Positions 1,035 through 21,874 of a stretch of 64,000 nucleotides of DNA are shown piece after piece; the first letter of the stretch is position 1, and the number at the start of each line of letters is the position of its first letter. The translations under genes and the position numbers were made by a program. This DNA is from Lunularia cruciata. Its lineage: Eukaryota > Streptophyta > Marchantiopsida > Lunulariales > Lunulariaceae. The stretch spans positions 10,979,001 to 11,043,000 of the forward strand of contig OX419758.1 in the NCBI GenBank assembly GCA_948567375.1. Reading direction: 5' to 3'. Below the pieces are notes generated by a model that saw only the letters and a list, made by a program, of their open reading frames with translations, did not search any database and was not told where the DNA came from.

Positions 1035-1764
1035 CTACTCTTTCAGTTCTTCGGCTTGCTTCTGCAATTCCTTACCTCTTGATTCAACACTCTCTTGCAA
1101 CTTCTCAAAAGTCTTTTTCTTCAAGATTGCATCCACTCGATGTTCTTCAACTTCCTCGTTTCTTTGGACTGCTTGCTCTTGCAAACCCTTCACTTCAACC
1201 AGTAGATACTTCACCACCTGCAACTCATTTGTCACCTTCATACAATCTTGGGGAATTACCTTCTGGTGCTCCTTCAACAGTTCCAACAATGGAGTGACAA
1301 CCTTCGATAGATATTGTATTTTACCAAATTTATCTTTGTCTTTGGCCCCGTCTTCGTACTTCGCTTTTTCCATCGGCTCCTTCTGCCAAAGTCGCAGTCT
1401 TTGTATCTTTAGAGACATTGCTTCCGAGCTTCCTTCTTCCTTACCCACTAAACTCGGCCCCGTAGGATACTCCTTCCGTCTTTCAGCCCCCTTCTCTTTC
1501 ACAACCAAGGCTACGCAATGATTCTTCTTTTCTGATACACTATCAATCATCGCATGACAAGCTTCATCCCCTTCTTCTTCTTGAGCCGATTGTTGAATCT
1601 CGTCTTCACCCTCACTCTCACTTCCGGATTCTTCACTTTGTAAAGTGAGTTCCTCTTCTTCTGAGTCCTCTCCTTGAAACTTTATTTCCCCTTCAGACTC
1701 GGTTTCTGATGATGCTTCTCTCACACTCTTCTTACTCTGCAGAACCAGTCTTTGGGTCTTTTGT
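1035..1764 (-). pseudogene. CCE-1 acidic and coiled-coil protein, central fragment
   Basis: This minus-strand open stretch is the continuation of the protein begun at 15740-15037. It starts with a segment matching CCE-3 (QKTQRL.LQ.KK), followed by a Ser/Glu/Asp-rich acidic block and then a helical, charged, Leu-heptad region. The apparent upstream extension to 1850 is only DMP-1 terminal repeat translated by chance. No catalytic motifs are seen. The sister copies suggest a full-length protein near 800 residues: a basic N-terminus, a globular domain, an acidic linker and a long coiled coil. The function is unknown. A Gag-like structural role is possible but unproven. Confidence 0.55.
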
Positions 1765-1870
1765 GATGTGCGTATATACATTGCTACACAACATACATTG
1801 CTGTCAACATCATACACTATAGAAGCACAACTCACACATAAGTCATACATAGACTCTAAAGTGCCACAAT
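1765..1870 (-). repeat. DMP-1 terminal module b, outer copy
   Basis: This ~106-bp module is nearly identical to 2319-2427. On the minus strand it starts ATTGTGGCACTTTAG and ends CGCACATCA, and it forms the true 3' end of DMP-1 next to the target duplication. The 5' end of the element has no matching copy. Confidence 0.85.
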
Positions 1871-2318
1871 AATCAGATTGCTTAACACTCTCAACTCAAC
1901 TCAACTCAGATCAGTACTTGATCTGTCACTCTATAAACTGCCAACAACTGGGTCTTGATTACAATCAAGCCACACCCACTCAAGCATAGAGAATCCAGGT
2001 GATGCTCACCGGCCTTTGTCCACCATAGCCAGGAACTTGAAGGCTCAACATCAGAGAAGTGAGCTCTCTGGAGCTCACTTCAAAACTATACCCCCTGGAC
2101 TCAAGCTAGCTCTGAAACCCTAACGGTCGTGTTGATGGCACACTCGACGGTGCGAATGGTGCAAAGTGACGGTGGGCCCCACCATGAAGTTAGTACCCTG
2201 AACACAAAATCTAACCGTCGGAAAGTAGTCTCTGAGAAACTGCTGAAATAACTCTAACTACTATCATTGGAACTCCAGTGTCCGAGCATCTAGATGCGGC
2301 ACTACAAATGGCGTGACA
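1871..2318 (-). repeat. DMP-1 terminal module a, 3' copy
   Basis: This 448-bp direct repeat corresponds to 14589-15036 with scattered substitutions. On the minus strand it starts TGTCACGCCATTTGTAG and ends AATCTGATT. It is flanked on both sides by module b, giving b-a-b at the 3' end. Confidence 0.88.
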
Positions 2319-2427
2319 GCTATCGTGCGTATATACATCGCTACACAACATACATTGCTGTCAACATCATACACTATAGAAGCACAACTCACACATAAAT
2401 CATACATAGACTCTAAAGTGCCACAAT
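2319..2427 (-). repeat. DMP-1 terminal module b, inner copy
   Basis: This copy of module b lies directly after the polypurine tract and before module a. By the usual rule that plus-strand DNA starts at the polypurine tract, it would be the start of the reverse-transcribed long repeat (b+a). Confidence 0.85.
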
Positions 2428-2436
2428 CGCTCCCCT
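2428..2436 (-). other. Polypurine tract of DMP-1
   Basis: On the minus strand this reads AGGGGAGCG, immediately before inner module b. DMP-2 has AGGGGGAGG at the equivalent place. The position matches the plus-strand priming site of LTR retroelements. Confidence 0.6.
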
Positions 2437-2593
2437 AGCTGGCGTTAGGTCCCTCTAACTCCAAATAGCCATCTACTCTAAGTATATGGTATACCCTCTA
2501 ATGGGCAAAGATCAGGAGGCCGGGTGCTATGGAGCCCCATCGTTAGTCGCTTGTTTGCAATCTATACCATATAAAGAATGAACTAGCTATAGG

Positions 2594-3136
2594 TCAAGTA
2601 CATCTAGGACATAACCACTGTCCTTGAGGAACCACCGTGAGGGGAGGAGTCATACATGCGATATGCCATCCTCTCGAACAGCTATCACAAACCAACATAG
2701 TAGCAGCTCTACTAGAAGAGCCACATAACATACACCTCAAGCCTGCACATACAAGTGCCAAGCTTGGGTCCATAGTACCATCAATATTTGGAAGGTGGCA
2801 TGGTGCACAATTGCATACATGATCCTTCCAAACAACACCATCACGTCCTTCTAACACAAGGACTCTAGATGGCAAAACCTCGCGCACTGTCAAGATAGTG
2901 CGGCCTGTAGAAACATCAAGTGTTGTCGGTGCTGTCTGCTGTAGATATACATAGTTGCCTGGATGAAATTGACGGATTGAGGGTCTATTACCTCCTCCTC
3001 GAATGGTAGCATAGCGTAAAGTATCTCTATGCTGAGCAATTGCCAAGTTCTCAAAGGCCATCGGCATCACTCTCCGAAAGATCTCTGCCCGCTGAGAACA
3101 TGCGCTCATCCATACATCGGGATCATCCAAGTCCAA
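2594..3136 (-). pseudogene. DMP-1 integrase C-terminus fused to PHD finger
   Basis: The first ~120 residues are the C-terminal part of a gypsy-type integrase: an AQHRDTLRYATIR-like helix, an F.PGNYVYL strand, then NCAPCHLPNID. The last ~45 residues form a PHD finger with all eight zinc ligands in C4-H-C3 order: CMLC, CDSC, W..H..C, a QGQWL segment and CPRC. PHD fingers usually read histone H3 tails. Here one may steer integration to a chromatin state, as chromodomains do in chromoviruses; that role is inferred. The segment is in the same frame as RT and integrase, and the true upstream sequence is separated only by in-frame stops. The protein ends at a stop just after CPRCT. This finger looks intact, whereas DMP-2 has lost one ligand. 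Confidence 0.85.
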
Positions 3137-3139
3137 AAC

Positions 3140-3900
3140 TACAGTAGCATCTCAACGAATGGTTGCAGGTAAATCTGGATCTCGTCCATAGAGTAGAAAG
3201 TATGGAGAGAAGGATGCTAAGGAGGCTTGCCGGCTGAACTGATAGCCCATGGCCAACCAAGGTAACTAGAGATCCCAATCTCCCAAGTGGCCTCTCTGCA
3301 AACCATACTTTTGTAATCCTTTCTTCACCGTCTGAACCACTCTCTCTACTAAGCCATCTACCTCAGGGTGATCTCGGGATGTAGTACAATGATCAATCAA
3401 AGCCTTGTCACACAAGACCTGAAACTCCCCCAAGAACTCTGTACCCTGATCAGTCAAAACCTAAGCTGGTGCACCAAAATGACTAAGAACTCGATCCAGG
3501 AACAAGTAAGTTGTCCCTTCACTAGACTTGTCAGGAAGTGCCACCAACTCAATCCACTTGGAGAAGTGCTCCACCATCACCAAAACATACCGATGATGTC
3601 TCACAGTCAGTGGTAAAGGTCCGGTGAAGTCCAAACTCCAATGGTAACCCAATCCCATGATAGGTAATGGGTGTAACTGTGGTGTAGGAGCATTGAATGA
3701 TGCTCTAACTTGGTCACAAACCATACATCTGGCAACAAATTGCTATACCTCGGTCTGCCACCAATAATGACTCTGGAGTAAGCTATACGTACGCTTTACT
3801 CCAAAATGTCCTAGCTCCTCATGACCATGACGGACCAACTGTGGTCTCTGTGATGGAAGTGGTACTACTCGCACTCTACCATCTTCCCATACATGCAAAA
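3140..3900 (-). pseudogene. DMP-1 integrase core (DDE)
   Basis: This is the catalytic core of a retroviral-type integrase, in the RT frame. The three acidic residues are visible: the first Asp in SLDFTGP, the second in LTDQGTEF, and the Glu in DGLVERVVQT. Upstream, an HGHEELGHFG...C..C region corresponds to the HHCC zinc-binding domain. There are stops near 3740 (TAG, also present in DMP-2), 3458-3460 (TAG where DMP-2 has GAG), 3263-3265 (TAG where DMP-2 has CAA) and near 3152 (TGA, shared with DMP-2). The enzyme would insert element cDNA into the genome. No tyrosine-recombinase motif is seen, which matters because the terminal repeats resemble those of tyrosine-recombinase elements. Confidence 0.82.
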
Positions 3901-4027
3901 GGTGTCTACCCTCCAATCTGAACCGTCTGGCTCACTGAAGAACACGGTCTCTCTCCTTGGCCCCAATTGTGCCACCCACAACACCAGTGCAAAGATAGTC
4001 CATCACTAAGACATCATCATGAATGTC

Positions 4028-5760
4028 TCACTGAACTGTACCAATATCTTCACTCTCTAGATCTATGACCTCAATAATTCCTCCTGTATGCGTTGAGAGA
4101 GATATCACCAAAGCCTCTGCAAATATACATAGAAAGGCCGATGCATGCCAACGTGGCACCATCTCCTCATCTGTCTCACCATGCCAACGTGCTCCTGTCT
4201 GATCCTGTTGGCTGGGACATGGGTTTCTACTCAACCCATCTACATCACGGTTCACCACTCCAAGTCTGTGAACAACCATGAAATCATACTCCTATTAAAT
4301 CAGAGCCCATTGTGCAAGCTTCCCTAAAAGCTTGTCAGACTCCATCAACCACTTCAGCGGCTGATGATTAGTGATGAGAGTGAAGGGGTTACCAAATAGG
4401 TAACATCAGAAATGTGCTACTGCCCAAACTGCTGCCAAGCACTCTCCCTCATATGAACTATACTTCGCCTCCACTGAATTGTTGGAGCGACTAGCATAGG
4501 CCACCACAAACTCCTTCTCCTCATCATCATGTTGGGTGAGCACCGCTCCAAGCCCCAACATACTCCAATCAGTGTGAACCTGAAATGGTCGTCCCCTGAT
4601 CGGTCTCCACAAAATAGGAGCAGATGTCAACCTCTCCTTGAGCTCTACAAAAGCTCTCTCTTGCTCATCTCCCCAACACCACTCCTGTGTAAGCTTGGTC
4701 AGCTTTGTCAAGGCCTTGGCAATGGCACTAAATCCTCTAACATAGCGGCAATAGAAGTTTGCCAACCCAAGGAATGCTCGCACTCTGCTCACATCCGTAG
4801 GCCGAGGAATATGTGCAATAGCCTCCACCTTGGTCTACTGAACACCAAGTCCTCCAAGGTAGATAGTGTGACCCAAATACTCAATCTGCTCGTGGAAGAA
4901 CCTACACTTCCTAGGATGTAATTTGAGTCCATGAGATCTCAACCTCTCAAACACCTCCAACAATTGTCTCTCATGCTCCTCCATAGTAGTGCTATAAACC
5001 AAAATGTCATCAATATAGCAGCAAGCAAAATCCAATCCAGCTAGGATCCTATCCATGACCCTTTGGAACTCAGCAGGAGCGTTCTTTAACCCAAATGGTA
5101 AGAACCTCCACTAATATAACACATCCTTGACGTGAGGATCAATAGCCCAAAATGATGTCTTGGACTTATCCTCCTCTCTGATCGGCAACTGATGATATCT
5201 TGCTTGAGGATCCAAAGTACTGAAGATCTTTGCATGCACAATTGCATCGAAAATCTCCTCCGGTGTAGGCATGGCATACCAATCAGCCCTGGTCTATCGG
5301 TTGATAGGATGGTAATCTCCACACATCCGCCTATCTGTATAGTTGCCATGCATATCCTTCTTGGCTGGCATCATTGTCACTGATGCATACTCTCCATGTG
5401 AAATCTCTACCAAACCAGCCTCAAAAAGGTCACTACTCCGACTCTGAATCAATGTCCTCTCCATATCACTATATTGATAAGGACATCGGAAAACTGGTGT
5501 GTCGCTAGTTAGCTCAATCCGTATACCAAATCCCTTTAGAGCACCCAAATCCTTCATACTAAAGGCAAAACAACTTGTGTGACTCCTCAAGAACCTCCAA
5601 ACCCTCCGTCTTTCCTCTCCAGTAAGCTCGGTCCAAGATCTGGCTACCAAGTATCCTCTATAACTGTAGTAGGAGTGGAAGACGTACTGACTAACTGCTA
5701 CATTGGGCCCTTGGGAGCAATAGTGTCATGCTCCCGACCACTAGAGGTCCCAACCTCTAT
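4028..5760 (-). pseudogene. DMP-1 reverse transcriptase and RNase H
   Basis: This is a Ty3/gypsy-type RT-RNase H region in one frame. It begins in a segment reading GPNVAVSQYVFHSYYSYRGY and GEERRRVWRFL, continues through MPAKKD and CGDYHPINR, then PTPEEIFDAI, WRFLPFGLKNAPAEFQ and the catalytic YIDDILVYS (near 4990-5015). RNase H follows, with HTDWSMLGLGAVL and a Glu in YSSYEGECLAAVWAV. In-frame stops: 5294-5296 TAG (also in DMP-2), 5111-5113 TAG (DMP-2 CAG), 4835-4837 TAG (adjacent Gln codons, each copy having lost a different one), 4406-4408 TGA, a TAA-TAG pair near 4290, and 4028-4030 TGA (DMP-2 CAA). There is no frameshift. It lies in a different frame from the upstream protein that carries the methyltransferase. 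Confidence 0.85.
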
Positions 5761-5949
5761 GCAAAAAACTCCCTCCACTCTAGCTGCAAGCTCCACACGT
5801 CCTCTGGCTGCATCCCATGTGGACCAAGGGTGTAATCCAAGTAGCCAACGCTCACCTGGATGGACTCCAAGTAGACCACTCTCCCTAGTAGCTATTGGAT
5901 GTGTCCCAAGAATACCATGTCCACTCGGTCCATCGTCCCCAACATGTGC
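5698..5949 (-). pseudogene. DMP-1 linker between methyltransferase and RT, broken by CCE-2
   Basis: This is the tail of the upstream reading frame that carries the methyltransferase. It resumes in frame below CCE-2 (GDDGPSGHGILG, LLGVHPGERWLLGLHPW and similar Gly/His/Pro repeats) and ends at a TAG at 5698-5700. The RT frame overlaps it by tens of codons. In DMP-2 the same linker is intact at about 18350-18600, with three copies of a TWSP-type repeat. No domain is recognised. It may be a spacer or an expression-frame junction. Confidence 0.5.
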
Positions 5950-8900
5950 TGTGACAACCCGGCAAATATCACTTTTGCGGTAATTGGGTAAGTAAAGTTC
6001 GTTCCCGTAGAGATACGAGTCAGAATTGGTCAAATACGAAGCAAAGTAACAATTTCAGTTCTTCTTGAGTTCTTCTTTAATCTCTCAGGTAGAAACCACA
6101 TCCAGAAGAGAATAACAAGCACTGATTTGAAGTCTTGTCACAAATTCACACTCCTTAATCACAAATCCTTCAATTCTTTCCAAACAATCTTGATTGTGAT
6201 GATTCAGGCTCTCCCGAAAATGGCACTTCACTGCAAAACAACTTCACCTCAGAATTGTGTTCCACCCCTCCACTGAAGGCACAACTTCCTCGATCGAAAT
6301 TGCTTCACATCAACTTTGCACTGCACTCACAAATGCAGAATACTACCAACACTACAATTCCTCTCAGATCTGTCAAGGCATTGCTTCGATTGCACTTCAC
6401 TCAGGATCAAACACACAAAATGAAGATCAAGGCTGTGGAATCCAACATCCAACAAGCACATTGACTTGCATTTTGAATTTCTCCAAACACTCACAAATAT
6501 AGACACAAAGTTGATACTCAGAATCAAGCTCAAGCGACAAGCACTGCTTCACAACACTTCGCTTTATCTATTCTCAGAAATAATGAGCATTGAACAACAA
6601 GTCTCTACGAATGCCACTCTTAAGTAGTGAACAAATCGACAGTTCTAACAACTATACCGTTCTACAACAACTGTTCTAACCTGCAGATCCGAAATGACAA
6701 TGCACCTCTTCATATCTGCCCCTTCAAATCTCAAATCTGTTACCACTACAATCCAATGTCTACTTCTTCCTTGGCTTTCAACCCCGAACCCAAAGTAATC
6801 TTACTTCCTACTACATTTTCCTCGGGTTTCACATCTTCTACTTCTTTGACCAGATCCAACAATTCTCTTTCCCGATCTGAAATTTCACTAGTGGGAAATC
6901 TATCTAACTCCTTATCTCCTGACCCACTCTTCTCTAATGTCTCTGAGGGCAACTCTGAAGACATTTGGATTCCTATGTTATCTACTTTGGGTTTTGCCTT
7001 AACATCTTTCCAAAGCTTTTCTAACTCTATTTTCACTAAGTCTAATCTAATTGAAATGTTATCCTCTACTTCTAACACCTTTCTATCTACATGAGTTCTT
7101 AGTTTGATTAACAAGTCATTCATCTCCGTGTCCTTTGCTTGTCTTCGCCTCGTCTCTTGCACCAACAACTTCAACTCGTGCAGTCGCACTTCTTCAATTC
7201 AAACGTTGGCTTCTATACTTAACATTGCATTCACTCTGAGGACTATCTCCTTTAATGGCTCCAATATTGTCTTTCGTTCTCGTTCCCGATCTGCAAGCCA
7301 TTCCTCTCTGTACATCGCCAACTCTTCCTCAAACTCGGCTTTCACAGCTTCCTTCTCTTTCTCCTTCTGTACAACTTTCTCTTCCTGATTACGAAGTAAC
7401 TCTCGTAATCTCTCTTCTTCTCTATACCGCACAGACAACTCTCTTTGCCAGAGTTGCTTCTTCTCCTCCATACTCTCCATCACTCGATCAAGCTCTTGTT
7501 CCTTTGATGCTACCCTCGCCATAGGATGGATAAGCTCTACTCTTGAATCAGCAAACTGCTGCTTCAAGATTTTGTACTCCGCTACCTGTCTCTCCCTTGC
7601 GATGTCACTCTTCCTCGCAAGATCCTCTCGATAGCTCACTTCTCTCTTCAGGTCTTTGATTACTTGACTTCTCTCTATTGCTTTTGCTCGCAGTACTTCT
7701 CTCTCCTTCTCACCTCGGGTTATACTCCTTTTAACTCCGAGTTCTCCTCTTCTAATCTTGCTACCACCTGCAATCCAGTCTTTACTTCTAGACAAGTCGA
7801 CTGCATCTCTTTCTTCTTCTGCTCCAACTTCACCAACAGCGGGCACACTACCTCTCGCAGGTACTCTACTCCCTCATTGGCAACTTCTTCCTCCCGCGGA
7901 GTAATTTCTTGTTTCTCCTCGTGTTCTCCTTATACGCGCCTTCTTCTCTGAAGTCTTTGTATCGGGATTGATGCCTCACTACCCGAGTTGTCTTTTGCCT
8001 CTTCCTTCACTCTACTCGGCCCCGCCTCACACTTTGCCTTACGTCTCAAGCAAACTCCTCACTGTACTGCGATCTTCTTCTCCTCGAGCACCGGTACTTC
8101 GTCTTCCAGCACCGCATTGTCTTCGGCTTCTACTTTGGCTTGCACTTCTTCTTTGTATTCTTCAGCCGCTGGCGCCGAGGTCATTTCTCCACCGTCTTCA
8201 TTGTCACTGCTAGTATCTCCATTCTGTAGTGTCAGCTCAGGTTCCTCCTCATGTTCCGAGTCCTCCGTCTTGAGCTCGGCCTCGCCTTCTGAGTCTTCAT
8301 CTTCTGACTCAATCACCACCATTCCTCGCCTCGGGTTATTGTTTTGCATCTTCCGAGGTTTCTTGTTTTCTTCGGCTTCTGCTTGCCGAGTTCTCTCCTT
8401 CGTCTTATCCCGCAGATTCCACACCATCTGCCTTGTTCTCTCGTGAAAACACCTCCCCAATTAATTGATTCTCTTGCAAACAATTTTTGAAAGAACACCG
8501 CTTGGTGTTTCATCACATAAGTTGTTCTCTCTGGCTGTAGGATTGCCATCAAAGCACTCACAATTCCTCTCTTGATAGGATCTTTGTAACTTTCTACCTT
8601 GTACCCATTCTTTGTTCTCTTTGACGAGAGGGCATCTCTCACCTCCTGCGTTTCTTGGGCTATCTCTCCTTTCTCCAAGAACGTGGCTCCGAACCCGCCT
8701 CCTTCCCGAGTACAAGTCTCCAATCCGACTCTGTCCAGCGAGCCGGATTTCCTCTCTTCCCTTCTTCCTTGGGACCATCAAGACACTTACTCTTGATGAT
8801 TTCTATCATGAATCCTGGAAAACTTACGTTCCAGTTCCATGCCAGAAAGGTGATCCGCAGTTGGCTCAAGACTTTGATCCTTGCTACTACATCTAATCTC

Positions 8901-9504
8901 CGAATTGCATGATTTCTCACTGCAAATTCGGAGTTCTTCTTCCCTCTTCCCATCTCTATTGCTTTCTTACTGTCTCTCAATTTATCTCTTGCGACTTCTC
9001 CCTTGCGCACTAACCCGAGTCCAACTTTATTTCCCTTTCCCCGATCACCTGCAAGACGACTCCTCAACGGCGAAGGAAAATTGCTCAACATTTCGTCGTT
9101 GCAGTTTTGATTTTTATAGAGTTGCACTTCTTCGTCTTCCGTCACTTTGAGTTTCTACCGAGAAATCATACCTCTAGCATGCACCTGTCACTGTCAATCA
9201 ACCTTTGCGCGTATGAGCCGCCAGTTTTGAAACGGCCCCTTCTTGAATTTCTCACCCCGACAAAAGGTTGTTAGACTGTCTTCGCCTCGGGTTGAGCTCC
9301 CCCCGATCCGAAGACAATCTACTTCGTATTGTATGCTGACAGGGCATTTCTGAGTACTTTGCCTTATGACCCAAAGTCACTTTACTTTGGGTTTCATCCC
9401 AAAGACAATTTTCTTCGCCTTCTTCGGCCATATAGGCGCAATCCGACTTCTCTATACACTTCTTCTCCTTTATTTTGAAAAAAAACAAAAATGTGGGCAC
9501 CACA
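5950..9504 (-). mobile_element. CCE-2: complete non-LTR-flanked element with 5-bp target duplication
   Basis: On the minus strand the element begins TGTGGTGCCCACATT and ends GGGTTGTCACA. TGTGC is present at 5945-5949 and 9505-9509. The uninterrupted target is seen in DMP-2 near 18340. It is 3555 bp long. The first and last ~600 bp are unrelated, so there are no LTRs; only a short imperfect terminal inversion (TGTG..CCCA) is visible. It encodes one coiled-coil protein with no reverse transcriptase, integrase or transposase. It must be moved in trans if mobile. Confidence 0.8.
6746..9145 (-). pseudogene. CCE-2 coiled-coil protein (frameshifted)
   Basis: Minus-strand segments in order: 9145-8660, a Lys/Arg-rich start followed by GNPARWTESDWRLVLGKEAG; 8723-8460, NGYKVESYKDPIKRGIVSAL then a VFFQKLFAR-type globular domain; 8460-8059, FHERTRQMV followed by a strongly acidic linker rich in E, D and S; 7846-6746, a long coiled coil (EEKKQLWQRELSVRYREEER). 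The pieces fall in different frames, so at least three indels have occurred. The globular domain loosely recalls the plant 'putative transposon protein' type seen in some plant elements; this is from memory and tentative. Full length would be near 800 residues. The function is unknown. Confidence 0.6.
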
Positions 9505-9509
9505 TGTGC

Positions 9510-10724
9510 CTGAATCGTCTCGATAGGCACATGGCTCACAAGTGTCCGAGTGGTGATGCCTATCAAACGCATCCTATGTTGCTCTGCCAAGCCAAGGCTC
9601 ACAATCCAGGTCAAACAATTCAGGTCCATAGCCTGACTTAACACCTGACGCTTGGACGCCTTTGACACTGCTGGAATAGCGGTAATACCAGTGCAAAAAC
9701 CCATCGCCCGCTCTCTCTCATCAGCATTGGGCTCCACCAACTGCTGTAACTGTGAGTCCCAAACAAGTCCAGGTCCTCCCTCTCAAAAAGCATGAGACCC
9801 TAGGAAACTCATGAGTGTGGGAAATGCAGCTCTAGGCTGTCCAACTAGGTTCATCACTGCCATAGGTGACCTATCAGCCACAACCATTGTTTGAGACTGA
9901 CGCCCAACATCCAAGATATCATCAACAAGGATGTAGTCAAGTCGCTGAATCCTATCATAAGCGCGTTGTAGAACCTCTCTGGGTAAGAGGTTTGTCCACC
10001 AAAGACAAAGACGATGAGCCCGTGATCCCACTCTAGCTGCATCTAACAATACAGTAGGTCCCATCCAAGAATGGACCTGATGTGTACTCGCCACCACTCT
10101 GGTGCAAGAATCACCCAACAAAGGAACATTCTCCAGAAGGTAAGCTGGAGAAACAGACTGATGAACCAAGAGATGTCATAATATCCATAATATCTCCCAA
10201 AACACACCAGAATGAGGATCCTGAAGACCTAAACCGCGGCTCGCACGTGTATGTCCCTAACATGGCCATCCAGAAATCACCAAATGAAAAAGCCCATGTC
10301 TCTCTAGGTCATGCGCCCCCAGTAAGGAAATGTCTCTTGGTAGGGCTTTTTGGTAACCTTTGACTGCTGACATCGGTAATAACTCCGGATACCGATAGGC
10401 CAAGTGTGCCACATGATGTAGAGAGACTCGCCTAGCAATCTCATCCCTCTCTACATACAAGTACCTCTATACTCAAATACCCGCCTGTAACACCGTAGCT
10501 AGTCCGGTGTTGATTCCACCAAACAACTCCAATAGGCATATCTCCTCTGCTGGATACTGCCAAGCAATGAGTGTGGTATCCAGAGGTGTCAAAGCAATCG
10601 CCTCTAGAGGCTCATCCTCACACTCATCTCCTGATGGTATGAAGGCTCCACTCCAAGCCTGCTGCACCAACTGATCTGCATGTTGCTGCAATGCCCCCTC
10701 TGAACTCCACAATAGAACATCCAA
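9510..10724 (-). pseudogene. DMP-1 C5-cytosine DNA methyltransferase (DNMT3-like motif order)
   Basis: One reading frame with three internal stops contains the ordered motifs of a cytosine-5 DNA methyltransferase. Motif I is CLLELFGGINTGLATVLQAG (near 10480-10540), binding S-adenosylmethionine. Next come YLYVERDEIARRV and motif IV, VISGWPC followed by GHTRASRG (near 10262), holding the catalytic Cys. Motif VI is YLLENVPLLGD, motif VIII is VLLDAARVGSRAHR, motif IX is ERAMGFCTGIT and motif X is RQVLSQAMDLNCL. The I-to-X order fits DNMT3 or DNMT1 rather than the permuted plant DRM type, and details in VIII to X recall DNMT3. The Gln after the catalytic Cys is TAG here but CAA in DMP-2 and DMP-3. 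It lies between protease and RT. Retroelement-borne methyltransferases have been reported from charophytes and dinoflagellates, where self-methylation was proposed. Confidence 0.85.
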
Positions 10725-11075
10725 GGTGGATGGAACAATCCCACTCGTACTCCAAAGTCAAGTGATATCCTCTAGTACTGTAATATCCTCTGCATGGGCG
10801 TTCCCCTCCAACAAGTCACCAGGCCACGTAACTACACCACTGAAAGCTAAAACTGATGCTGCCATGGTCTCGGACTGTAGTGAGCCAAGACTGCCACTAC
10901 CCGTACTGGTAGGCGACATACCCGTCCCTCACCAGACTGCCAACCAGGTCTATAAGAGGTTGTCTCCTCCCAATAGTCAATGTTGAAACCCATGGGGTAT
11001 AACACTATTCCCCCAACTAGCACATCATATGACTCAGCTATCGTCGCAATAGCCTGAGCTCTCACCATCGAGCTA

Positions 11076-11742
11076 TTAGTTGGATGACCAGGTTGAACTT
11101 GGACAACAAGCTCTCCATGTGTGATGTACTATGTCGAACCACCACCTAGAGATGTCTGGATCTGAAATGGACACCTCTCCATATCGGTCTTCCGTAACTC
11201 CAGACCAACAATTGCAGCTTTCCCCAACATAAGGGGCTGCGCACCAGAGTCTAACAAGACTCTCTATGGTGTATAGACCTTCCCTAAAGGTCCTACCAAC
11301 AAAAAATCCCCCTTTGGTTATCCAATAGGACAACACCAGGTGTAAATCGTGCTCTCTCAAAGGCCGGTCTAGCTGGCAACTCCTCCAGTCTAGCCGCTGC
11401 TGCTTGCCATAAACCACTAGTCGCTGAACGGATCCCATGCTCCTCAACCAAGTCAGCTTCACTACCAACCACCTCTGCTCTAGTAGTAGGAACTGCACCA
11501 TCCCTACTCTCACACAACGTGGCAACCAACCGGAATACTGGAGCTGGGTCAACTCCCAATGTAAACATATCACTGGCCGAAAACAAAGGACCTCGCATAA
11601 TCAGCTGAGCCACCCCCAACATCATGCTAGACTCAGTCTCTGTAGTAGCAGGTGGCTGACTAGCAGGTGGCTGACTAGCAGGTAGTCCATCATGTACTCC
11701 ATCACCACCTACCACACCTACATTGGGACGTCTAGGAACCAT
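11076..11742 (-). pseudogene. DMP-1 aspartic protease region
   Basis: The retropepsin signature LLDSGAQPLMLGK is encoded at about 11225-11270. Asp-Ser-Gly is intact, followed by a hydrophobic stretch typical of retroelement proteases. The equivalent in DMP-2 is LLDYGAEPLMLGK (Ser to Tyr). It would mature the polyprotein. It lies upstream of the methyltransferase, and several stops and frame changes surround it. The interval 10725-11075 (VLVGGIVLYPMGFNIDYWEE) is the likely protease C-terminus and linker. Confidence 0.65.
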
Positions 11743-11876
11743 GGATGTTGTCTACAATGCCTCAGATAGTGTGAAAGACTGGGGAAGTCTGACCTATCTC
11801 CCAACCTCTCCTCTTTGTGGGTCCAACTCCACTGATGCTCCTCTAGGCTCTGGAGCACGTACTGCACTCCTAGTCA

Positions 11877-13343
11877 CTATTGTAGATGCATCCACCTAGG
11901 CTGCTCCGCACATGAAGTCCAAAGCATCTCTATCACCAGCATATGAGGTGGAAGCCTCAGCACCCGAATCTGATCTCCTCTGAGCAATAACCATACTAGC
12001 CAATCTCTACTCCAATTGCTCAATCTGAGTAGCCATAGCTGTGTTAGAAGTAAGGGCAAGTACTGCATCCCTACTAGGTGTAGATCCTCTACCACCACCT
12101 CGTCCTCCATGAACTGGAGCTCCTCTACTACCTGCCATAGCAGCCCTACCACTCCGTAACTCCGGGTGTAGGTCAAAACACCGGTCACTAGTGTGACCAA
12201 ATCTGTGGCAATGCTCACACTTTCTCTATGCTGGCTATGATGCACCCAAGGTATCAGGTCCACTGCCCTGAGTACACTCTCTCCAATGGTGAGGTCCACC
12301 ACAAGTCCAACAAGCAACACCACCACTCACTGGCTGCTACTGACCCGAAAATGAGGGTAAGGGTCTAACTCCACTAGGCCCTCCACTCGCTCCATAGGAT
12401 CTGGGCTGTCCACCCTGTCCTTGAAAACCAACTAGGTGTGGTGCACTCTACTGCACTCTAGAAGAAGTCACAGCCATAGATGAGGTCTCCCTACCAAATC
12501 CAAATGTCACCACTCTCTCCTCCACCATATTGAGCTCAATACACTCAGCCAAACCAAAGACTACTGCCAAAGTAGGCAAAGTAGCCTGCAACAACATAGC
12601 ATCACGAACTCTACGTCGCAACTCCCTGTCCAGTATCCCATACCAAAACTAGACTACCTGGGCCTCAATAACTCCCTGAGTGAAACTGATCAGCCGCCTC
12701 ATGCGAGTGTATGCCTTGCGTAGGCTCTTTCCAGCCTTCCATTAGAACTCCTGCAAGCTCCTTAGCTTGTCAGTCCGCACTCCTTGGTGGTTCTGCCTCA
12801 AACATAGAAAGAACTCCACCATGGGGTTAAACCCCGGTACCACACCACCTCCTACAGCGGTACCTCCACTTGTAGTAGCACTATCTCTAGCTAGTGCACC
12901 TCCACTAGCTCCACCAACACTACTCGAGCTAGAACTCATAGGTACAACCGATCTACTCCTGGCCACCAAGCCTAAAGTGATGGAGACATAGTGTGGAGAC
13001 CAATATTGTCTCCATAACTCAATCTCCTCCAAATGAGCTCTCCTAAACTCATGGTAGTCATCTATTGGTGGACCCTCCAAGTGCTGAAACAACCCCTTCC
13101 ATGCCATGAAGGGTGTGAACTAAGTCGTGTTCCGCATCTACTGCAGATCACACCAACTGTCGAACTCCTGGATGAAGTCATCCAACTCAATGGTACCCAC
13201 TGTACCAGATTAACGCCTAGGGCCTTTGGAGGCCCCATAAATCTCGTCCATGTCCCACAACAATGATGTGGACACACCAAGTGCACTCTCAATTGAATCA
13301 ACTCTTGTGTCAAATTCCAACTCAGAGTCAATCTCCTCCCTCA
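11877..13343 (-). pseudogene. DMP-1 gag with two CCHC zinc knuckles
   Basis: The N-terminal part includes TIELDDFIQEFDSWCDLQ, FMAWKGLFQHLEGPPIDDYH and EEIELWRQYWSPHY. A Ser/Gly-rich linker (VVPMSSSSSSVGGASGG) follows at about 12840-12960. The nucleocapsid part near 12180-12310 has two zinc knuckles, CWTCGGPHHWREC and CEHCHRFGHTSDRC. DMP-3 supplies an intact start codon at 57964 for the same protein; DMP-1 has GTG there. Two TAG codons fall at Gln positions of the DMP-3 copy. It would form the capsid-like particle and bind element RNA. Confidence 0.7.
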
Positions 13344-14588
13344 CTGGGACCTAAGATACAGCCTGATACCAAGCACCACTTCGAGTAAACCCACTACGTA
13401 CTGCAGGGCTAACTCCTTTGGAATCTCCAAAGAACTCCGTCGTGACAAAGTAACCACAACAGCAAACCCAAACCACCAACTGCAACCGCAAGTCACAACC
13501 GCAAGTACCCCACCAAGTGCCAACACCACCAAGCACCACCCACTAATGTAACTCTAACCAAGATAACTATACTAGGGGAAAGGGCAACCTATAACCTACC
13601 ATCATAACACGCACTCTCACGGTCTACAAATCATCACTTCTTGCCTCACCGGAGAGAAACAAAGGTAGTCTGACTGGTCATCACTCCAGCCTCACCACCG
13701 AGAGCACACCAGAGCACCAACGCTCAAAAGTCAGGGCACCTCACATAAACGTGGTGCACAAATAGGAAGCAAAGAATGGAGGGGGTCCAATCACAAGAAA
13801 TCTAAATGAAAACCCTCCATCTCATAACACAACACAGGACTGACTCTGCCACCATTTGGCATTTGACATAAGAGGAGTTCGTACCTAAGCTACCAAGATC
13901 ACCAAGAATGGTATCAAACTGCCTCTCCTAGCCAAAGCTACATGTGTATAGATAACAATGGCACAGTCACTATGACAAAAAGTGAGGGTGGACCAATTGG
14001 CTAGGGCACCAGTCTAGGAACAAGAGATCTAGGGGTCAAACCCTATTGTGCACAATCTAACAAGAAAGGCAGATTTTGCCAACCAATGACCAAGATCTAC
14101 TCTAAACTAGCTAGCCTCACGCCTGCAAGCTGGCTTGCTGGCCCTTCTAGGCCTTCATAGCCTCTCATAGCCCACAGCCCTATGCCTCGAAGCCTCTAAA
14201 CTTTCCACTAAATCCCCCGCTAACTTTCCACTCGTGCCAAATTGACAAAACAGGTTTTTCCAAATCACAATTTCATGAGAAGAGCTTCCCAACTCCACCT
14301 TCAATTTGACTTTCTGAGCCCAACTCGCAGCAAATTGGTCCTGCCTTCACCTCTTGAGCTCAAAATCACAACACTGCTCAAAAATTGCTCCTTCTTTGCT
14401 CCAAATTTGACCAGCACTTCCGCACACCGTCCACCTAACTGCCAAATTTGCATCAATTGATTGAGCTTCTACACACTAGGGAAACACTGAACTCGAGTCG
14501 AGCTACCAATGATCCACCAAGCTTGGAGATACCACCAACACTCACAGTTCCTGCACCCAATTTTCCCCTGACTTCACTTCTCTGATGT
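13344..14588 (-). other. DMP-1 5' leader
   Basis: This is non-coding DNA between module a and gag, about 1.2 kb. The first bases after module a read ACATCAGAGAAGTGAAGTC; in DMP-3 they read ACAACAAAGAAGTGAGAGTC. I cannot assign a standard primer-binding site; there is only a 7-base ATCAGAG resemblance to the initiator-Met type. No supported ORF is present. Confidence 0.5.
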
Positions 14589-15036
14589 AATCAGATTGCT
14601 TAACACTCTCAACTCAACTCAACTCAGATCAGTACTTGATCTATCACTCTATAAATTGCCAACAAATGGGCCCTGATTACAATCAAGCCACACTCACTCA
14701 AGCATAGAGAATCTAGGTGACACTCACCGGCCTCTGTCCACCATAGCCAGGAACTCGAAGGCTCAACATCAGAGAAGTGAGCTCTCTGGAGCTCACTTCA
14801 AAACTATACCCCTTGGACTCGAGCTAGCTCTAAAACCCTAACGGTCCCGCTGATGGCACACTCGATGGTGCGAATGGTGCAAAGTGATGGTGGGTCCCAC
14901 CATGAAGTCAGTATCTTGAACACAAAATCTAACCGTCGGAAAGTAGTCTTTGAGAAACTGCTGAAATAACTCTACCTACTATCATTGGAACTCCAGTGTC
15001 CGAGCATCTAGATGCGGCACTACAAATGGCATGACA
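14589..15036 (-). repeat. DMP-1 terminal module a, 5' copy
   Basis: This 448-bp copy is the true 5' end. On the minus strand it begins TGTCATGCCATTTGTAG and is directly preceded by interrupted CCE-1 coding DNA and the ACAAA target copy. No module b is attached. Confidence 0.88.
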
Positions 15037-15740: not shown

Positions 15741-16459
15741 TTCATAATTGTGAAAGGGTTATGAATTCAAGTTCCATGCTAAGAAAGTAATATGAAGTCT
15801 ATTCAAGACTTGGATTCTTGCTACGACCTCTAACCTGCAAATTGCAAAACTTCTCACTGCCAGAGCATTTGTGACCTTCTTTGCCATGATCTGATCTCTC
15901 ATTCTTCAGCATTGGAAAACTATTCCTTCTCTTGGACGAGACACTCTAACCCCTTCTGGATTTTGGAAAATTTCACTCTCAATTGGCTTCCTGACACGCA
16001 TTACTATAGGACAACTACTCAAAGGGATTGGAAATCTACTTGACATATTCAACTTGTCCCTGCACAATTGCAATTTTATATTACCCCAAATTGCACTCAT
16101 TCTTCAGTCAATTTCAAAATTGACTTCCCCTACTTCTACGTGTTGTTGTCTTGTCACTATCAAGACATGCTTCTTCTACCTCTGCCGTTTCTTGAATTGT
16201 ACTTTCTTGCCACATACCAAGGTTATTAGACGGTCTTCATATCGGCCTTTGCTTCCCAATCCAAAGACGATGCTCTTTGGACTTCTTTCTTCATACCCTT
16301 CTCCTGAGTACCTCCATCATCGGATCCGATCTCGACTTCTTCAGGTTTCCTTGGAAGTCACTCCTGTCCATTCCTTCTTTTGCAATTCAGCTTTCTTTGT
16401 TAACTTCTTCTCCCAAATACTAATAAACAAAAAAAAAACAAAGAAATGTGGGCACCACA
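15037..16459 (-). mobile_element. CCE-1 element, proximal (5') part
   Basis: On the minus strand this begins at 16459 with TGTGGTGCCCACATTTC, as in CCE-2, and runs to the DMP-1 insertion at 15037. The five bases after the end, TCTAT (16460-16464), are the start of DMP-2 sequence and match the DMP-1 paralogue (GGTCTATACACC), which supports an insertion in DMP-2. The non-coding 5' part (16459 to about 15900) is AT-rich. Confidence 0.75.
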
Positions 16460-16933
16460 TCTATATACCACAAAGGGTCTTACTAGACTATGGTGCAGAG
16501 CCCCTTATGTTGGGGAAGGCTATAGTTGTCGATCTGGAGTTACGGAAGATTGATGAGTAGAGGTGTCCATTTCATATCCAAACATCTCTAGGTGATAGTT
16601 CTACATAGTACATCACATGTGGAAGGGAGAGCTTGTTGTTCAGATTCAACTTGGTCATCCAATTGATGGCTTTGTGGTGAGAGCTCAGGCCATTGTGACA
16701 ATGGTTGAGTCATATGATGTGTTAGGTGGGGAGCAATATTATACCCCATGGGTTTCAATATTGACTATTGGGAGGAGATAGTCTCCTATAGACTAGGTTG
16801 GAAGTCAGGTGAGAGACAGGTATATTGTTTACTTGTACACTTTAGTAGTGGTAGTCTTGGCTCACTATAGTTTGGGACCATGGCAGTTTCAGTTTTAGCT
16901 TTCAATAGTTTTGTTACTTAGCCTAGTGATTTA

Positions 16934-18260
16934 TTGGAAAGGAACGCCCATGTAGAGGATACTCCAATACCAGAGGAGATCACTTGGATTTGGAGTAAAA
17001 GTGGGATCATTCCATCCACCTTGGATGTTTCATTGAGGAGTTCAGAGGAGGCATTGCAACAACATGCAGATTGGTTGGTGCAACAGACTTGGAGTGAAGC
17101 CTTTGTACCACTAGGCGACCAATGTGATGATGAGCCTCCAAAGTTGATTACCTTGACACCTTTGGATACCACACTCATTGTTTGGTAGTATCCAATAGAG
17201 AGAGTATGTCTATTGGAGTTGTTCAGTTGGATTAGTACTAGACTAGCTACGATACTACAAGCGGGTATACAAGTATAGAGATACTTGTATGTGGAGAGAG
17301 ATGAGACTACTAAGCGAGTCTCTCTACATCATGTGGCACACTTGGCTTATCAATATCCTGAGTTATTTCCAATGTCAATAGTCAAAGGTTACTAGAAGAC
17401 CTTACCAATAGACATTTCTACAAGGAGAGATATACTTGTATGTAGAGAGAGATGAAACTATTAGACGAGTCCACTCTACATCATGTGGCACACTTGGCCT
17501 ATCAATATTCTAAAGTTATTACCAATGTCAATAGTCAAGGGTTACTAGAAGACCTTACCAACAAACATTTCCTTGTTGGGGGCACAAGATTTGGAGAGAC
17601 ATGGTCCCATTCATTTGGTGATTTTTGGATGGTCATGTCAAGGACATACACACATTGGCTGAGGTTTGGGTCTTTAGGATCCTTGTTTTGGTGTGTTTTG
17701 GGAGATTTTATGGATACTACAACATCTCTAAGTTCATCAATCTATTTCTCCAACTTACATTTTGAAGAACATCCTTTGATGGGTGATTCGTGCACTAGGG
17801 TGGTGGCAAGCACACATTAGGTCCATTCTTGGATGGGACCTATTTGTGTTGTTGGATATAGCCAAAGTGGGATCATGGGCTCATTGTCTAAAGAGGTTCT
17901 ATAGTGATCTTATTATGGGATTCATCATTGTTGTTGACATCTTGGATGTTGAGCGTAAGTCTCATATGGTGGTAGTGGTTGATAGGTCATCTACGGCAAT
18001 GGTGAACCTAGTTGGACAACCCCAGATGCTTTTCCTATAGTTATGAGTTTCTTAGGCTCCCATGCTTTCAAGAGAGAGTCTTGGATTGGTTTGGGACTTG
18101 CAATCATAGTAGTTGGTGGAGCCCAACGCCGATGAGAGAGAGCGGGTGATGCATTTTTGTACTAGCATTACCATTGTTCTAGTGGTGTTAGAGGCATCCA
18201 AGCATCAAGTGTTAGGTCAGGCTATGGACCTTAATTTTTTGACCTGGATTGTGAGCCTTG
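16934..18260 (+). pseudogene. DMP-2 DNA methyltransferase, degraded
   Basis: Motif remnants occur in the same order as in DMP-1: VCLLELFSWISTRLATILQAG near 17205-17265, YLYVERDET, GWSCQGH near 17625 (catalytic Cys-Gln kept, Pro changed to Ser), ENV-like and GDSCTRVVASTH near 17790, LDIAKVGSWAH near 17850, and the GQAMDLNFLTWIVSLGL counterpart near 18210. A ~150-bp tandem duplication at 17281-17572 repeats the segment after motif I. Frameshifts and TAG codons make it non-functional. It supports the methyltransferase as a family trait rather than a one-off capture. Confidence 0.75.
17281..17572 (+). repeat. Tandem duplication (~150 bp) inside the DMP-2 methyltransferase
   Basis: Positions 17281-17431 and 17432-17572 are near-identical, both beginning ATACTTGTATGT and both containing the CATCATGTGGCACACTTGGC segment. 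DMP-1 and DMP-3 have one copy. Confidence 0.8.
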
Positions 18261-18599
18261 GTTTGGTAGAGTAGTGTAGGATGCGCTTGATAGGCATCAC
18301 CACCCAAACACTTGTGATCGTTGTGCCTATCAAGATGATTCAAACACATGCGGGGGGTGATGGACCCAAATGGATAGGGTATTCTTGGGACATAGCCAAT
18401 GGCTACAGGGGAGAATGGTCTACTTGGAGTCCATTCAAGTCTACTTGGAGTCCATCCATGTCTACTTGGATTACACTCTTGGTCCACTTTGGATGCAACT
18501 ATGGAGCTTGCAGCCAAAGTAGAGGGAGTTTTTCACACTAAGGTTGGGACCTCTAGTGTTTGAGGCATGACACTATTTCTCCCAAGGGCCCAATGTAGC

Positions 18600-20160
18600 A
18601 GCTAGTCAGTACATCTTCCACTCCTACAACAATTACAAGGGATACTTGGGAGCCAGATCTTGGACCCAAGCTTACAGGAGAGGAAAGATGGAAAGTTTGG
18701 AGGTTCTTGAAGAGCTACATAAGTTGTTTTCCCTTTAGTATGAAGGATATGGGTGCTCTGAAAGGACCTAGTATTTGGATTGAGTTGACTAGTGATGCAT
18801 CAATTTTTTGATGCTCCTATTGATATAGTGACATGGAGAGAGTATTGATTCAAAGTCGGAGTAGTGACCTTTTTGAGGTTGGTTTGGTAGAGATTTCCCA
18901 TGGAGATTATGCATCAACTACAATGATGCCAGCCAAGAAGGATATGCATGGCAACTACATAGATAGGAAAATGTGTGGAGATTACCATCCTATCAACCGA
19001 TAGACTAGTGCTTATCAGCATGTCATGCTTACACCAAAGGAGATCTTTGATGCAATTGGGCATGCAAAGGTCTTAGCACTTTGGATCTTTGAGTGGAATA
19101 TCATCAATTGTTTATCAGTGATGAGGATAAGTCCAAGATAGCATTTTGGGCTATTGATCCTCACAACAAGGATGTGTTATATCAGTGGAGGTTCTTACTA
19201 TTTGGGTTAAGGAACACTCTTGCCAAGTTGTCCTAGGGTCATAGATAGGATCCTAGTTGGATTGGGTTTTTCTTGGTGCTATATTGATAAGATTTTGGTC
19301 TATAGCACTACGGTGGAGGAGCATGAGAGACATTTGTTGGAGGTGTTTGAGAGATTAAGATCTCATGGACTCAAATTACATCTTGGGAAGTGTAGTTTCT
19401 TCCATGAGCAAGTTGAGTATTTTGTTCACACTATCTACCCTAGAAGACTTGGTGTTTAGCAAACCACGGTGAAGGCTATTGCGCATATTCCTTGGCCTAC
19501 GGATGTGAGTAGAGTGCAAGAATTCCTTGGGTTGGCAAACTTCTATTGCCGCTTTGTTAGAGGATTTAGTGCCATTGCCAAGGCCTTGACAAAGTTGACC
19601 AAGCTTACATAGGAGTGGTGTTGGGGAGATGAGCAAAAGAGAGCTTTTGTAGAGCTCAAGGAAAGGATGACATCTACTCCTATTTTGAGGAGACCAATTA
19701 GAGGACAACCATTTCATGTTCACACTGATTGGAGTATGTTGGAGCTTGGAGCAATGCTCACCTAGCATGATGATGAGAAGGAGTATGTGGTGGCCTATGC
19801 TAGTTGCTGCAAAAATTTAGTAGAGGTAAAGTGTAGTTCATATGAGGGAGAGTGCTTGCTAGCAATATGGGTAGTAGCACATTTTTTATGTTACCTATTT
19901 GGTAACCCCTTTTTACTCTTATCACTATTCATCAACCATTGAAGTGGTTGATGGAGTCTGACAAGCTTTCAAGGAAGCTTGTGCAATGAGCTCTAATTTT
20001 ATAAGAGTATGATTTTATGGTTATTCACAAACCTAGAGTGGTGAACCATGATGCAGATAAGTTGAGTAGAAACCCATGTCCCAACCAATAGGATCAGACT
20101 GGAACACATTGGCATGTTGATACAGATGAGGAGATGGTGCTAGGTTGGCATGCATCTACC
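18600..20160 (+). pseudogene. DMP-2 reverse transcriptase and RNase H, degraded
   Basis: The sequence is collinear with DMP-1: MPAKKDMHGNY, CGDYHPINR followed by the same TAG as DMP-1, PKEIFDAIGHAK, YQWRFLLFGLRN, WCYIDKILVYS (second catalytic Asp of the YxDD box lost), FLGLANFYCRFVRGFSAIAK and HTDWSMLELGAML. Two TAG codons occur where DMP-1 has CAG or CAA (before EWCWGDE and before HDDE). At least one frameshift lies near 19210. Confidence 0.78.
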
Positions 20161-20499
20161 TTTCTCTAAATAATTTTTTGAGGCTTTAGTGGTATCTCTC
20201 TCAATGCATAAAAGAGGAGTTATTGAGATCATAGATCAAAATAGTAGAGATAGTGGTACAATTCAACAAGACATTCATGATGATGTCTTAGTGATGGACT
20301 ATCTTTGCATTGGTGTTGTGGGTGGCACAATTGGGGCCAAGGAGAGAGATTGTGTTCTTCAATAGGCCAAATGGTTCAGATTGGAGGGCAAACCCCTTGT
20401 GTGTGTATGGGAGGATGGTAGAGTGCAAGTAGTACCACTCTCATCTTAGAGACCACAATTGGTCCATCATGCTCATGAAGAGCTAGGAAATTTTGGAGT

Positions 20500-21380
20500 A
20501 AAGCGTACATATAGCTTTCTCTAGAGTAATTATTGGTGGTGCGGTATGCAGACCAATGTTTAGCAATTTGTTTCCAGATGTGTGGTTTGTGACCAAGTTA
20601 GAGCATCATTTAATGCCCCTACGCCACAATTACACCCATTACCTATCATGGGATTGGGCTACCATTGGAGTTTGGACTTTACTGGACCTTTATCATTGAC
20701 TGTGAGACATCATCGGTATATTTTGGTGATGGTGGAGCAGTTCTCCAACTAGATTGAGTTGGTGGCACTTCCTAACAAGTCCAATGAAGGGACAGCTTAC
20801 TCTTTCCTAGATCAAGTTCTTAGTCATCTTGGTGCACCAATTGAGATTTTGACTGATCAAGGCATAGAGTTCTTGGGAGATTTTCAGGTCTTGGGAGATT
20901 TTCAGGTCTTGTGTGCTTTGATTGATCATCTATTACCTCTCGAGATCACCTTAAGGCAGATGGCTTAGTAAAGAGAGTGGTTCAGACAATGAAGAGAGGA
21001 TTGCAAAATTATGGTTTGCAAAGAGGCCACTTGGGAGATTGGGATCTCCAATTACCTTGGTCGGCCATGGGCTATCGGTTCAGTCGACAAGCCTTCTTAG
21101 CATCCTTCTCTCCTTACTTTTTATTCTATGGACAAGATCCAAATTTACCTGTAGCCATTCATTGAGATGTTATTATAGTGTTAGACTTGGATGATCTAGA
21201 TGTATGGATGAGTGCATGTTCTCAATGGGCAGAGATCTTTGGAAAGTGATGTCAATGGCCTTTGAGAAGTTAGCAATTGCTGAGCATAGGGATACCTTAT
21301 GCTATGCTACCATTCAAGGAGGAAATTAAGACTCTCAATCCATCAATTTCATCCAAATGACTATGTATATCTATACTAGA
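20500..21380 (+). pseudogene. DMP-2 integrase, degraded
   Basis: The core shows SLDFTGP, ILTDQGIEFLG and a degraded region where the Glu motif should be. An 18-bp tandem duplication (GDFQVL repeated, near 20877-20912) follows the second Asp. TAG and TGA codons are shared with DMP-1 (before QFV and before the D.VLDLDD segment). Confidence 0.72.
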
Positions 21381-21385
21381 CAACA

Positions 21386-21766: not shown

Positions 21767-21874
21767 CAATGGGGCTCGATAGCACCTGGCCTCCTGATCT
21801 TTTGCCCACCATAAGGTATACCATATACTTGGAGTAGATGGGTACCTAGAGTTAGAGGGACCTAACCGCTAGCT

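What the first reader, a model, noticed from the sequence alone, without database searches (positions are those of the whole stretch)
9510..10724. A cytosine-5 DNA methyltransferase is built into a Ty3/gypsy-like element
Between protease and RT of DMP-1 are motifs I (ELFGGINTG), IV (GWPC), VI (LLENVPLLGD), VIII (DAARVGSRAHR), IX and X in canonical order. DMP-2 (16934-18260) and DMP-3 (50466-51000) carry the same domain, with the catalytic WPCQG loop intact in DMP-3. Retroelement-encoded methyltransferases are known from charophytes and dinoflagellates (reported in 2018, as I recall), so the principle is not new. This element, its placement and its partners may be. It may methylate its own DNA or change host marking.
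Basis: partly seen in the sequence, partly recalled or inferred. Interest (0 to 1): 0.92.

Follow-up and report, generated by a model that had tools for sequence, protein, structure and literature searches.

The report
Methylating retrotransposon with rotated end repeats
A very abundant, fairly young jumping element in what is probably a liverwort genome carries its own DNA-methylating enzyme, a histone-reading finger and oddly rotated end repeats, which extends a kind of element previously described from a charophyte alga to land plants and green algae.

Summary

Beyond the finding: (1) the DNMT lies on the Gag-protease side of a conserved in-frame UAG in a tobamovirus-like readthrough context, so it should be made at Gag level; (2) the integrase ends in a PHD finger; (3) repeats are rotated (A-coding-B-NN-A-B) although the integrase is of DDE type, suggesting integration from a circle; (4) relatives occur in Marchantia, Sphagnum and chlorophytes, with the DNMT either before RT or between RNase H and integrase.

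The nearest published kind is KnitGypsy-Dnmt3 (Klebsormidium, 2018), with Gypsy pol, Dnmt3 and A-B-A-B repeats; I could not retrieve its sequence. Catalysis, readthrough and circle use are inferred, not shown.

The parts
1764..15036 (-). DMP-1, whole element (13,273 bp including a foreign insertion), flanked by the 4-bp duplication CAAA
   Evidence: Termini, duplication and length by script; alignment to copy L030.
14588..15036 (-). repeat A1 (left end, TGTC...)
   Evidence: Self-BLAST, 449 nt, 94.2% identical to A2.
10931..11314 (-). aspartic protease domain (broken)
   Evidence: Family HMM 143.5 bits; 2 stops.
9570..10565 (-). DNMT3-type C5-methyltransferase domain (broken: 5 stops)
   Evidence: Family HMM 386.6 bits; 93.3% nucleotide identity to copy L030, 5 in-frame stops.
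5950..9502 (.). foreign insertion inside DMP-1, between DNMT and the conserved UAG
   Evidence: Gap in the alignment to L030 with a 7-nt overlap at its edges.
5690..5710 (-). conserved in-frame UAG between the Gag-PR-DNMT and RT-RH-IN-PHD frames (approximate place)
   Evidence: TAG CAG TTA in DMP-1; place interpolated from the alignment.
4799..5518 (-). reverse transcriptase
   Evidence: Family HMM 269.0 bits.
4274..4687 (-). RNase H
   Evidence: Family HMM 179.1 bits.
3143..3892 (-). DDE integrase
   Evidence: Family HMM 324.5 bits.
2597..2740 (-). PHD finger at the integrase C-terminus
   Evidence: Family HMM 70.0 bits; PF00628 E 2.2e-10 on copy L030.
2321..2426 (-). repeat B1, directly after the purine tract AGGGGAGCGA (AGGGGGGCGA in better-kept copies)
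1870..2318 (-). repeat A2, separated from B1 by 2 nt (GC)
1764..1869 (-). repeat B2, the right end of the element (reads ...ATCA here, ...GACA in the other both-ended copies)
   Evidence: (family D19).
16459..22439 (+). DMP-2, 5'-truncated older copy: PR 16459-16810, DNMT 17189-18265, RT 18779-19498, RH 19610-20022, IN 20405-21165, PHD 21575-21718, B-NN-A junction at 21949-21950
50431..59404 (-). DMP-3, old copy cut off inside the DNMT domain and interrupted at 53120-57596; PR 51221-51613, DNMT 50431-50843

Best explanation
This is a retrotransposon lineage with Gypsy-type pol that carries a captured DNMT3-type de novo methyltransferase as a working part. Shown by sequence: layout A1 - Gag(CCHC)-PR-DNMT - UAG - RT-RH-IN-PHD - purine tract - B1-NN-A2-B2; 4-bp target duplications; constraint on the DNMT; two architectures in green plants. 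Inferred: the Gag-PR-DNMT polyprotein is the main product and Pol is made only by UAG readthrough, so many DNMT domains are built into each particle and can methylate the new DNA copy (CG, as DNMT3 relatives do) before or at integration. The PHD finger steers the integrase to a histone-H3 state. Reverse transcription makes copies bounded by B-A repeats, the ends join into a two-repeat circle, and the DDE integrase opens it at the CA-NN-TG site inside the repeat, which yields A-coding-B-NN-A-B. The likeliest benefit is that early methylation quiets the new copy or marks it as heterochromatin, limiting damage to host and element.
Against: No activity, expression, readthrough or circle data. In the published yeast test the Klebsormidium domain gave no methylation, which its authors call inconclusive. 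The Gag model is weak (pLDDT 65.5; no Foldseek hit at E <= 0.001). The 12 copies used for the constraint test were picked for score or long open frames; 6 of 12 have stops in the DNMT and two of the shared DNMT differences are stops. Pooled dN/dS of IN is 0.70. The genome-wide control for conventional repeat junctions did not complete. CG decay in the repeats shows methylation but not who did it.
Confidence: 0.66

Rival explanations
1. The DNMT serves against the host rather than on the element itself: it spreads methylation onto host genes or dilutes the host's silencing machinery.
For: Large copy number (at least 2379 A|coding junctions) could give a high dose; the integrase-PHD part is of a chromatin-reading type.
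Against: Its place in the Gag-side polyprotein argues for action inside particles; A1/A2 repeats of five young copies show the CG decay expected of methylated copies (18 of 31 transitions against 15.8% of C+G sites), though the host may have done this.
Confidence: 0.15
2. The DNMT is a passenger or has only a structural (nucleic-acid binding) role.
For: No activity data; window copies are broken and 6 of 12 better-kept copies have a stop in the domain.
Against: Catalytic cysteine kept in 12 of 12 better-kept copies, shared variation constrained as in PR and RT, nearly invariant motif columns over 40 sequences down to about 30% identity.
Confidence: 0.1
3. DNMTs were captured several times, from cellular DNMT3 in separate lineages, which would explain the two positions.
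For: Two positions in the polyprotein; the RNase-H-side type is not one group in the DNMT tree (28 of 34 rows together at SH-aLRT 84, the other 6 on unresolved basal branches); de Mendoza et al. describe independent captures in dinoflagellates and Klebsormidium.
Against: Retroelement DNMTs stand together apart from the two cellular DNMT3 used, and the PR-side type is a group in both the DNMT and the RT+RH trees, P0135 excepted.
Confidence: 0.22
4. The rotated repeats arise without a circle, by a template switch during reverse transcription that directly makes a linear A-coding-B-NN-A-B.
For: Structure alone cannot exclude it; no circle was observed.
Against: The purine tract stands directly before B1 in 8 of 8 both-ended copies, so the standard scheme defines B-A repeats; A2|B2 is an exact end-to-end join and B-NN-A looks like a circle junction.
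Confidence: 0.35

Closest known systems
KnitGypsy-Dnmt3 of Klebsormidium nitens (de Mendoza et al. 2018, PMC5890265; abstract, sections 9 and 10 and passages read)
   Same: Gypsy-type pol, unpermuted Dnmt3-related domain, A-coding-B-A-B repeats (their Fig. 4c legend), purifying selection on the DNMT.
   Different: Here: probable liverwort, PHD finger, DNMT upstream of RT and of a conserved UAG, end and duplication analysis. The words PHD and readthrough do not occur in that main text. The figure and the sequences were not seen, so no sequence comparison was possible.
SymbioDIRS-Dnmt3 of Symbiodinium (same paper)
   Same: Dnmt3 domain in a retrotransposon with A-coding-B-A-B repeats; also two domain orders.
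   Different: That element has a tyrosine recombinase; here a DDE integrase with 4-bp target duplications.
DNMT3A/DNMT3B catalytic domain
   Different: About 18-26% identity in the listed structural alignments; only DNA_methylase found by Pfam in ORF A, no PWWP or ADD; embedded in a retroelement polyprotein.
Ginger1 transposases (PMC2836005, passages read)
   Same: Gypsy-like integrase; one Ginger1 family in its Table 1 also bears a PHD finger; 4-bp duplications and TGT ends.
   Different: DNA transposon; its PHD goes with a Ulp1 domain; RT and DNMT are not part of it as described in those passages.
Chromoviruses (recalled)
   Same: Histone-reading domain at the integrase C-terminus.
   Different: Chromodomain there, PHD finger here.

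Membership tests
KnitGypsy-Dnmt3 kind | Gypsy-type RT, RNase H and rve integrase in that order | tested here: met
   Pfam on L030 ORF B; HMM order.
KnitGypsy-Dnmt3 kind | Dnmt3-related domain without rearranged motifs | tested here: met
KnitGypsy-Dnmt3 kind | A-coding-B-A-B repeats | tested here: met
   B1-NN-A2-B2 in 8 of 8 both-ended copies, full A1 in 7 of 8 (cp2 kept only its outer part).
KnitGypsy-Dnmt3 kind | DNMT inside the Pol polyprotein ORF | tested here: inconclusive
   Here it follows the protease but precedes a conserved UAG and RT; the published figure could not be seen.
KnitGypsy-Dnmt3 kind | same clade in DNMT and RT trees | not tested
   No Klebsormidium protein was named among the rows listed by three protein searches.
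Ty3/gypsy LTR retrotransposons | Gag with zinc knuckles, PR-RT-RH-IN order | tested here: met
   (knuckles by eye).
Ty3/gypsy LTR retrotransposons | two identical LTRs at both ends, next to the primer site and the purine tract | tested here: not met
   Ends are A and B, repeats split; conventional junctions 0 in L011-L024 and the window.
Ty3/gypsy LTR retrotransposons | short target duplications of the kind a DDE integrase makes | tested here: met
   4 bp in 7 of 8.
DIRS/PAT elements | tyrosine recombinase | tested here: not met
   None among Pfam hits of the four frames scanned; rve integrase instead.
DIRS/PAT elements | split direct repeats | tested here: met
DNMT3 enzymes | catalytic motifs I, IV, VI, VIII, IX, X in linear order | tested here: met
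DNMT3 enzymes | PWWP or ADD companion domain (animal type) | tested here: not met
   Only DNA_methylase found in L026 ORF A at E <= 0.1.
DNMT3 enzymes | de novo CG methylation | not testable with these tools
   Needs an enzyme assay.
Chromoviruses | chromodomain after the integrase | tested here: not met
   PHD (PF00628), no chromodomain among hits of L030 ORF B at E <= 0.1.

The most novel reading that the evidence does not exclude
A retrotransposon lineage as old as green plants packs a de novo methyltransferase at Gag dose, and its DDE integrase regularly integrates from closed two-repeat circles by cutting a CA-NN-TG site in the middle of the repeat, a route held to be a dead end for retroviruses. 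It thereby delivers DNA that may already be methylated to sites chosen by a PHD finger.
Probability: 0.35. Interest if true: 0.88.

Novelty: new variant of a known kind. Interest (0 to 1): 0.74.

Why it matters
A 2019 paper states that methylase-encoding transposons are not present in land plants such as tracheophytes (PMC6338049, passage), the 2018 paper treats Klebsormidium as its own capture, and a 2025 paper still points only to streptophytes and dinoflagellates as previously reported (PMC12344493, passage). Here relatives occur in liverworts, a moss and chlorophytes, so the association may be ancient. The element offers testable cases for three questions: why parasites methylate themselves, how a DDE integrase can use rotated repeats, and what Gag-level dosing of a methyltransferase does. 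The family may have been active recently (A repeats 97-99% identical in 5 of the 7 copies with both A repeats).

Tried and rejected
Ordinary LTRs: I first read the 450-nt repeats as LTRs; the conserved DNA beyond the right repeat and the B repeats showed that this was wrong.

A tRNA-type primer site: by eye no TGG follows A1; a perfect TCTGAT-TAC-ATCAGA inverted repeat spans the A1|coding boundary instead (sequences); unresolved. Rfam found nothing in L030.

Klebsormidium sequences: none named in three protein searches, each limited by length range and shared words, two of them capped at 8000 scored candidates and the third search listing 120 of 357 hits, so absence shows nothing. Scans of viral contigs with P0145 and of genome contigs with P0104 confirmed no relative.

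Cellular origin of the DNMT: the tree had only two cellular sequences (the host DNMT3 read from L001 and a piece of human DNMT3A), both on long branches, so the source of the capture is open. P0135 sits apart on a long branch in both trees.

Print search: no paper on a liverwort or PHD-bearing DNMT Gypsy element appeared in the listings of ten searches (72 asked for split repeats, 94 for readthrough); most subscription papers are not held. Papers seen in part: PMC5890265 (abstract, sections 9 and 10, passages), PMC6338049, PMC12344493, PMC2754532 and PMC2836005 (passages), PMC9985172 (section 5, passages). Recalled and from no call: the CAR-YYA rule for leaky UAG, the DIRS circle model, chromovirus features, what the similar PHD fingers bind, the view of retroviral two-LTR circles as dead ends, which named algae are chlorophytes.

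An extra methyltransferase-like tail after the PHD in P0022 and P0034 (seen by eye) has no Pfam match at E <= 0.01.

Full report
WHERE. The window is a stretch of a 565.8-Mb eukaryote genome in 74 contigs. The host is probably a complex thalloid liverwort: the closest named protein relatives are from Marchantia and Riccia, the genome holds DNMT3-like, DRM-like and CMT-like exons (L001-L004, by eye and in part by HMM), and the size is near the 580 Mb listed for Lunularia cruciata, whose genome is enlarged by Ty3/Gypsy bursts (PMC9985172, section 5 and passages). The species name is a guess; no call tested it.

THE OBSERVATION. It holds. In DMP-1, minus strand, the order is protease 10931-11314, DNMT 9570-10565, RT 4799-5518, RNase H 4274-4687, integrase 3143-3892, PHD 2597-2740. 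A 3.55-kb insertion sits between DNMT and RT. DMP-2 and DMP-3 are older and truncated. All three are broken: the aligned DNMT stretches have 5, 10 and 3 in-frame stops, the last over only 37% of the domain.

BETTER-KEPT COPIES. A PF00145 search of the genome scored 123 of 2161 candidates, all 123 over the cut-off. I inspected 16 of the 123: four look like host genes (L001-L004), twelve are copies of this element (L005-L010 and cp1-cp5, cp7; L006 is also cp6). Open frames around the match reach 1428 aa. The twelve were the best-scoring or longest-open rows, so they are not a random sample. Twelve of 12 keep the catalytic cysteine; 11 of 12 have no indel and 6 of 12 no stop in the DNMT domain. 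Losses: cp6 and L008 a motif-I glycine, cp5 a motif-VIII arginine, cp4 a stop after the cysteine. Identity of A1 to A2 is 97-99% in five copies, 94% in DMP-1 and 89% in cp5. Pattern counts: 2379 A1|coding junctions, 2954 A2|B2 junctions, 771 DNMT|RT junctions by a stricter, slightly misplaced pattern; reversed control patterns gave 0. The surplus of right ends may be solo remnants; how many of the 2379 carry a DNMT was not counted.

PHD. PF00628 E 2.2e-10 at the integrase C-terminus. The most similar solved fingers are those of CHD4, KMT2D, KMT2C, KDM5B, DPF-type proteins and PHF21A; several of these read the H3 tail (recalled). Of the 138 proteins of the first two searches 93 held both integrase and PHD by HMM (tallies).

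ROTATED REPEATS. Eight copies were seen with both ends. They read A1 - coding - purine tract - B1 (about 106 nt) - 2 nt - A2 (449 nt) - B2; cp2 has lost the inner part of A1 and the DNA next to it. The left end is TGTC in 8 of 8 and the right end GACA in 7 of 8 (ATCA in DMP-1). Exact 4-bp duplications flank 7 of 8 (ACTC, TAGC, CATA, TTTA, AGTG, GAGG, CAAA; cp5 has none). GACA-NN-TGTC stands between B1 and A2 in 6 of 8, AATA or GATA replacing GACA in cp5 and DMP-1. Conventional junctions (B|coding, purine tract|A) occur 0 times in L011-L024 and the window; the genome-wide control did not complete. Reverse transcription should therefore define B-NN-A repeats, but the integrase uses A...B ends. 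A two-repeat circle opened at CA-NN-TG gives exactly the structure seen, A2|B2 being the circle's end-to-end join. De Mendoza et al. report the same repeat order for KnitGypsy-Dnmt3 (legend; order spelled out for SymbioDIRS).

METHYLATION FOOTPRINT. Between A1 and A2 of five young copies 18 of 31 transitions lie at CG, against 15.8% of C+G positions (p 9e-8). In the older DMP-1 it is 6 of 23, with 11 at CHG. CpG observed/expected is 0.51 in L030, 0.46 in DMP-1, 0.18 in DMP-2, 0.65 in 23-42 kb of the window. Copies have been methylated; by whom is open.

RELATIVES. Three protein searches gave 35, 115 and 357 hits (120 of the 357 listed). Named with a DNMT domain: Marchantia polymorpha, Sphagnum fallax (a gene model with a fragmented domain), Monoraphidium, Cymbomonas, Chlamydomonas eustigma, Volvox reticuliferus and Haematococcus (P0219). 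The hits of Riccia, V. africanus and four further Haematococcus proteins show no DNMT. Of 139 DNMT proteins from the first two searches, the host copy included, 31 have the DNMT before RT or directly after the protease, 97 have it after RT or RNase H (before the integrase where that is present), 11 cannot be told. The DNMT tree (65 rows, two thirds of the unnamed RNase-H-side rows left out) groups 18 of 19 PR-side rows (SH-aLRT 91, below the star level); 28 of 34 RNase-H-side rows group at 84 and the other 6 are on unresolved basal branches. The RT+RH tree (51 rows, half of the unnamed RNase-H-side rows left out) groups 5 of 6 PR-side rows (96) and all 44 of the other type (99). P0135 is the outlier in both. 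P0152 and P0193 carry DNMT and RT in one open frame, so the UAG is not universal. Several Marchantia gene models end after the DNMT or run into RT, which would fit a stop there but does not show it.

VERDICT. The finding is real and richer than stated. As a kind it is known (DNMT-bearing Gypsy-type element with DIRS-like repeats); the host range, the Gag-side placement with a conserved UAG, the PHD, the end analysis and the two architectures did not appear in the literature searched. Claims about dosing, self-methylation and circle integration are inference.

Noticed in passing
window 5950-9502; 49082-49301; 56563-56839: The insertion inside DMP-1 shares pieces with two other places in the window (84-89%), so it is itself a repeat of another kind; a 7-nt overlap at its edges may be its target duplication.
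   Followed up: partly
window 42412-46841 (-): A second Gypsy element with gag, RT, RNase H and integrase in which no DNMT or PHD was detected; used as outgroup.
   Followed up: partly
window 27953-30958 (+): Open frame of 1002 aa without a stop with VIT and von Willebrand A domains; probably a host gene.
   Followed up: no
A1|coding boundary, e.g. window near 14587 (-): Perfect inverted repeat TCTGAT-TAC-ATCAGA where a primer binding site would be expected, and no TGG-type site seen; the primer is unknown.
   Followed up: no
P0022 and P0034, C-terminal tails: A stretch after the PHD that by eye resembles another SAM-methyltransferase; no Pfam match.
   Followed up: partly
P0109; P0028, P0036, P0043, P0122, P0196, P0225: Related polyproteins with a chromodomain besides the PHD (P0109) or with a G-patch domain, by their precomputed Pfam lists.
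   Followed up: no
L002: A DRM-like host gene with the C-terminal motifs before motifs I-IV in one open frame of 404 aa.
   Followed up: no
P0104: A polyprotein of this family is filed under a Minisyncoccia bacterium genome bin, perhaps a misbinned algal contig.
   Followed up: no
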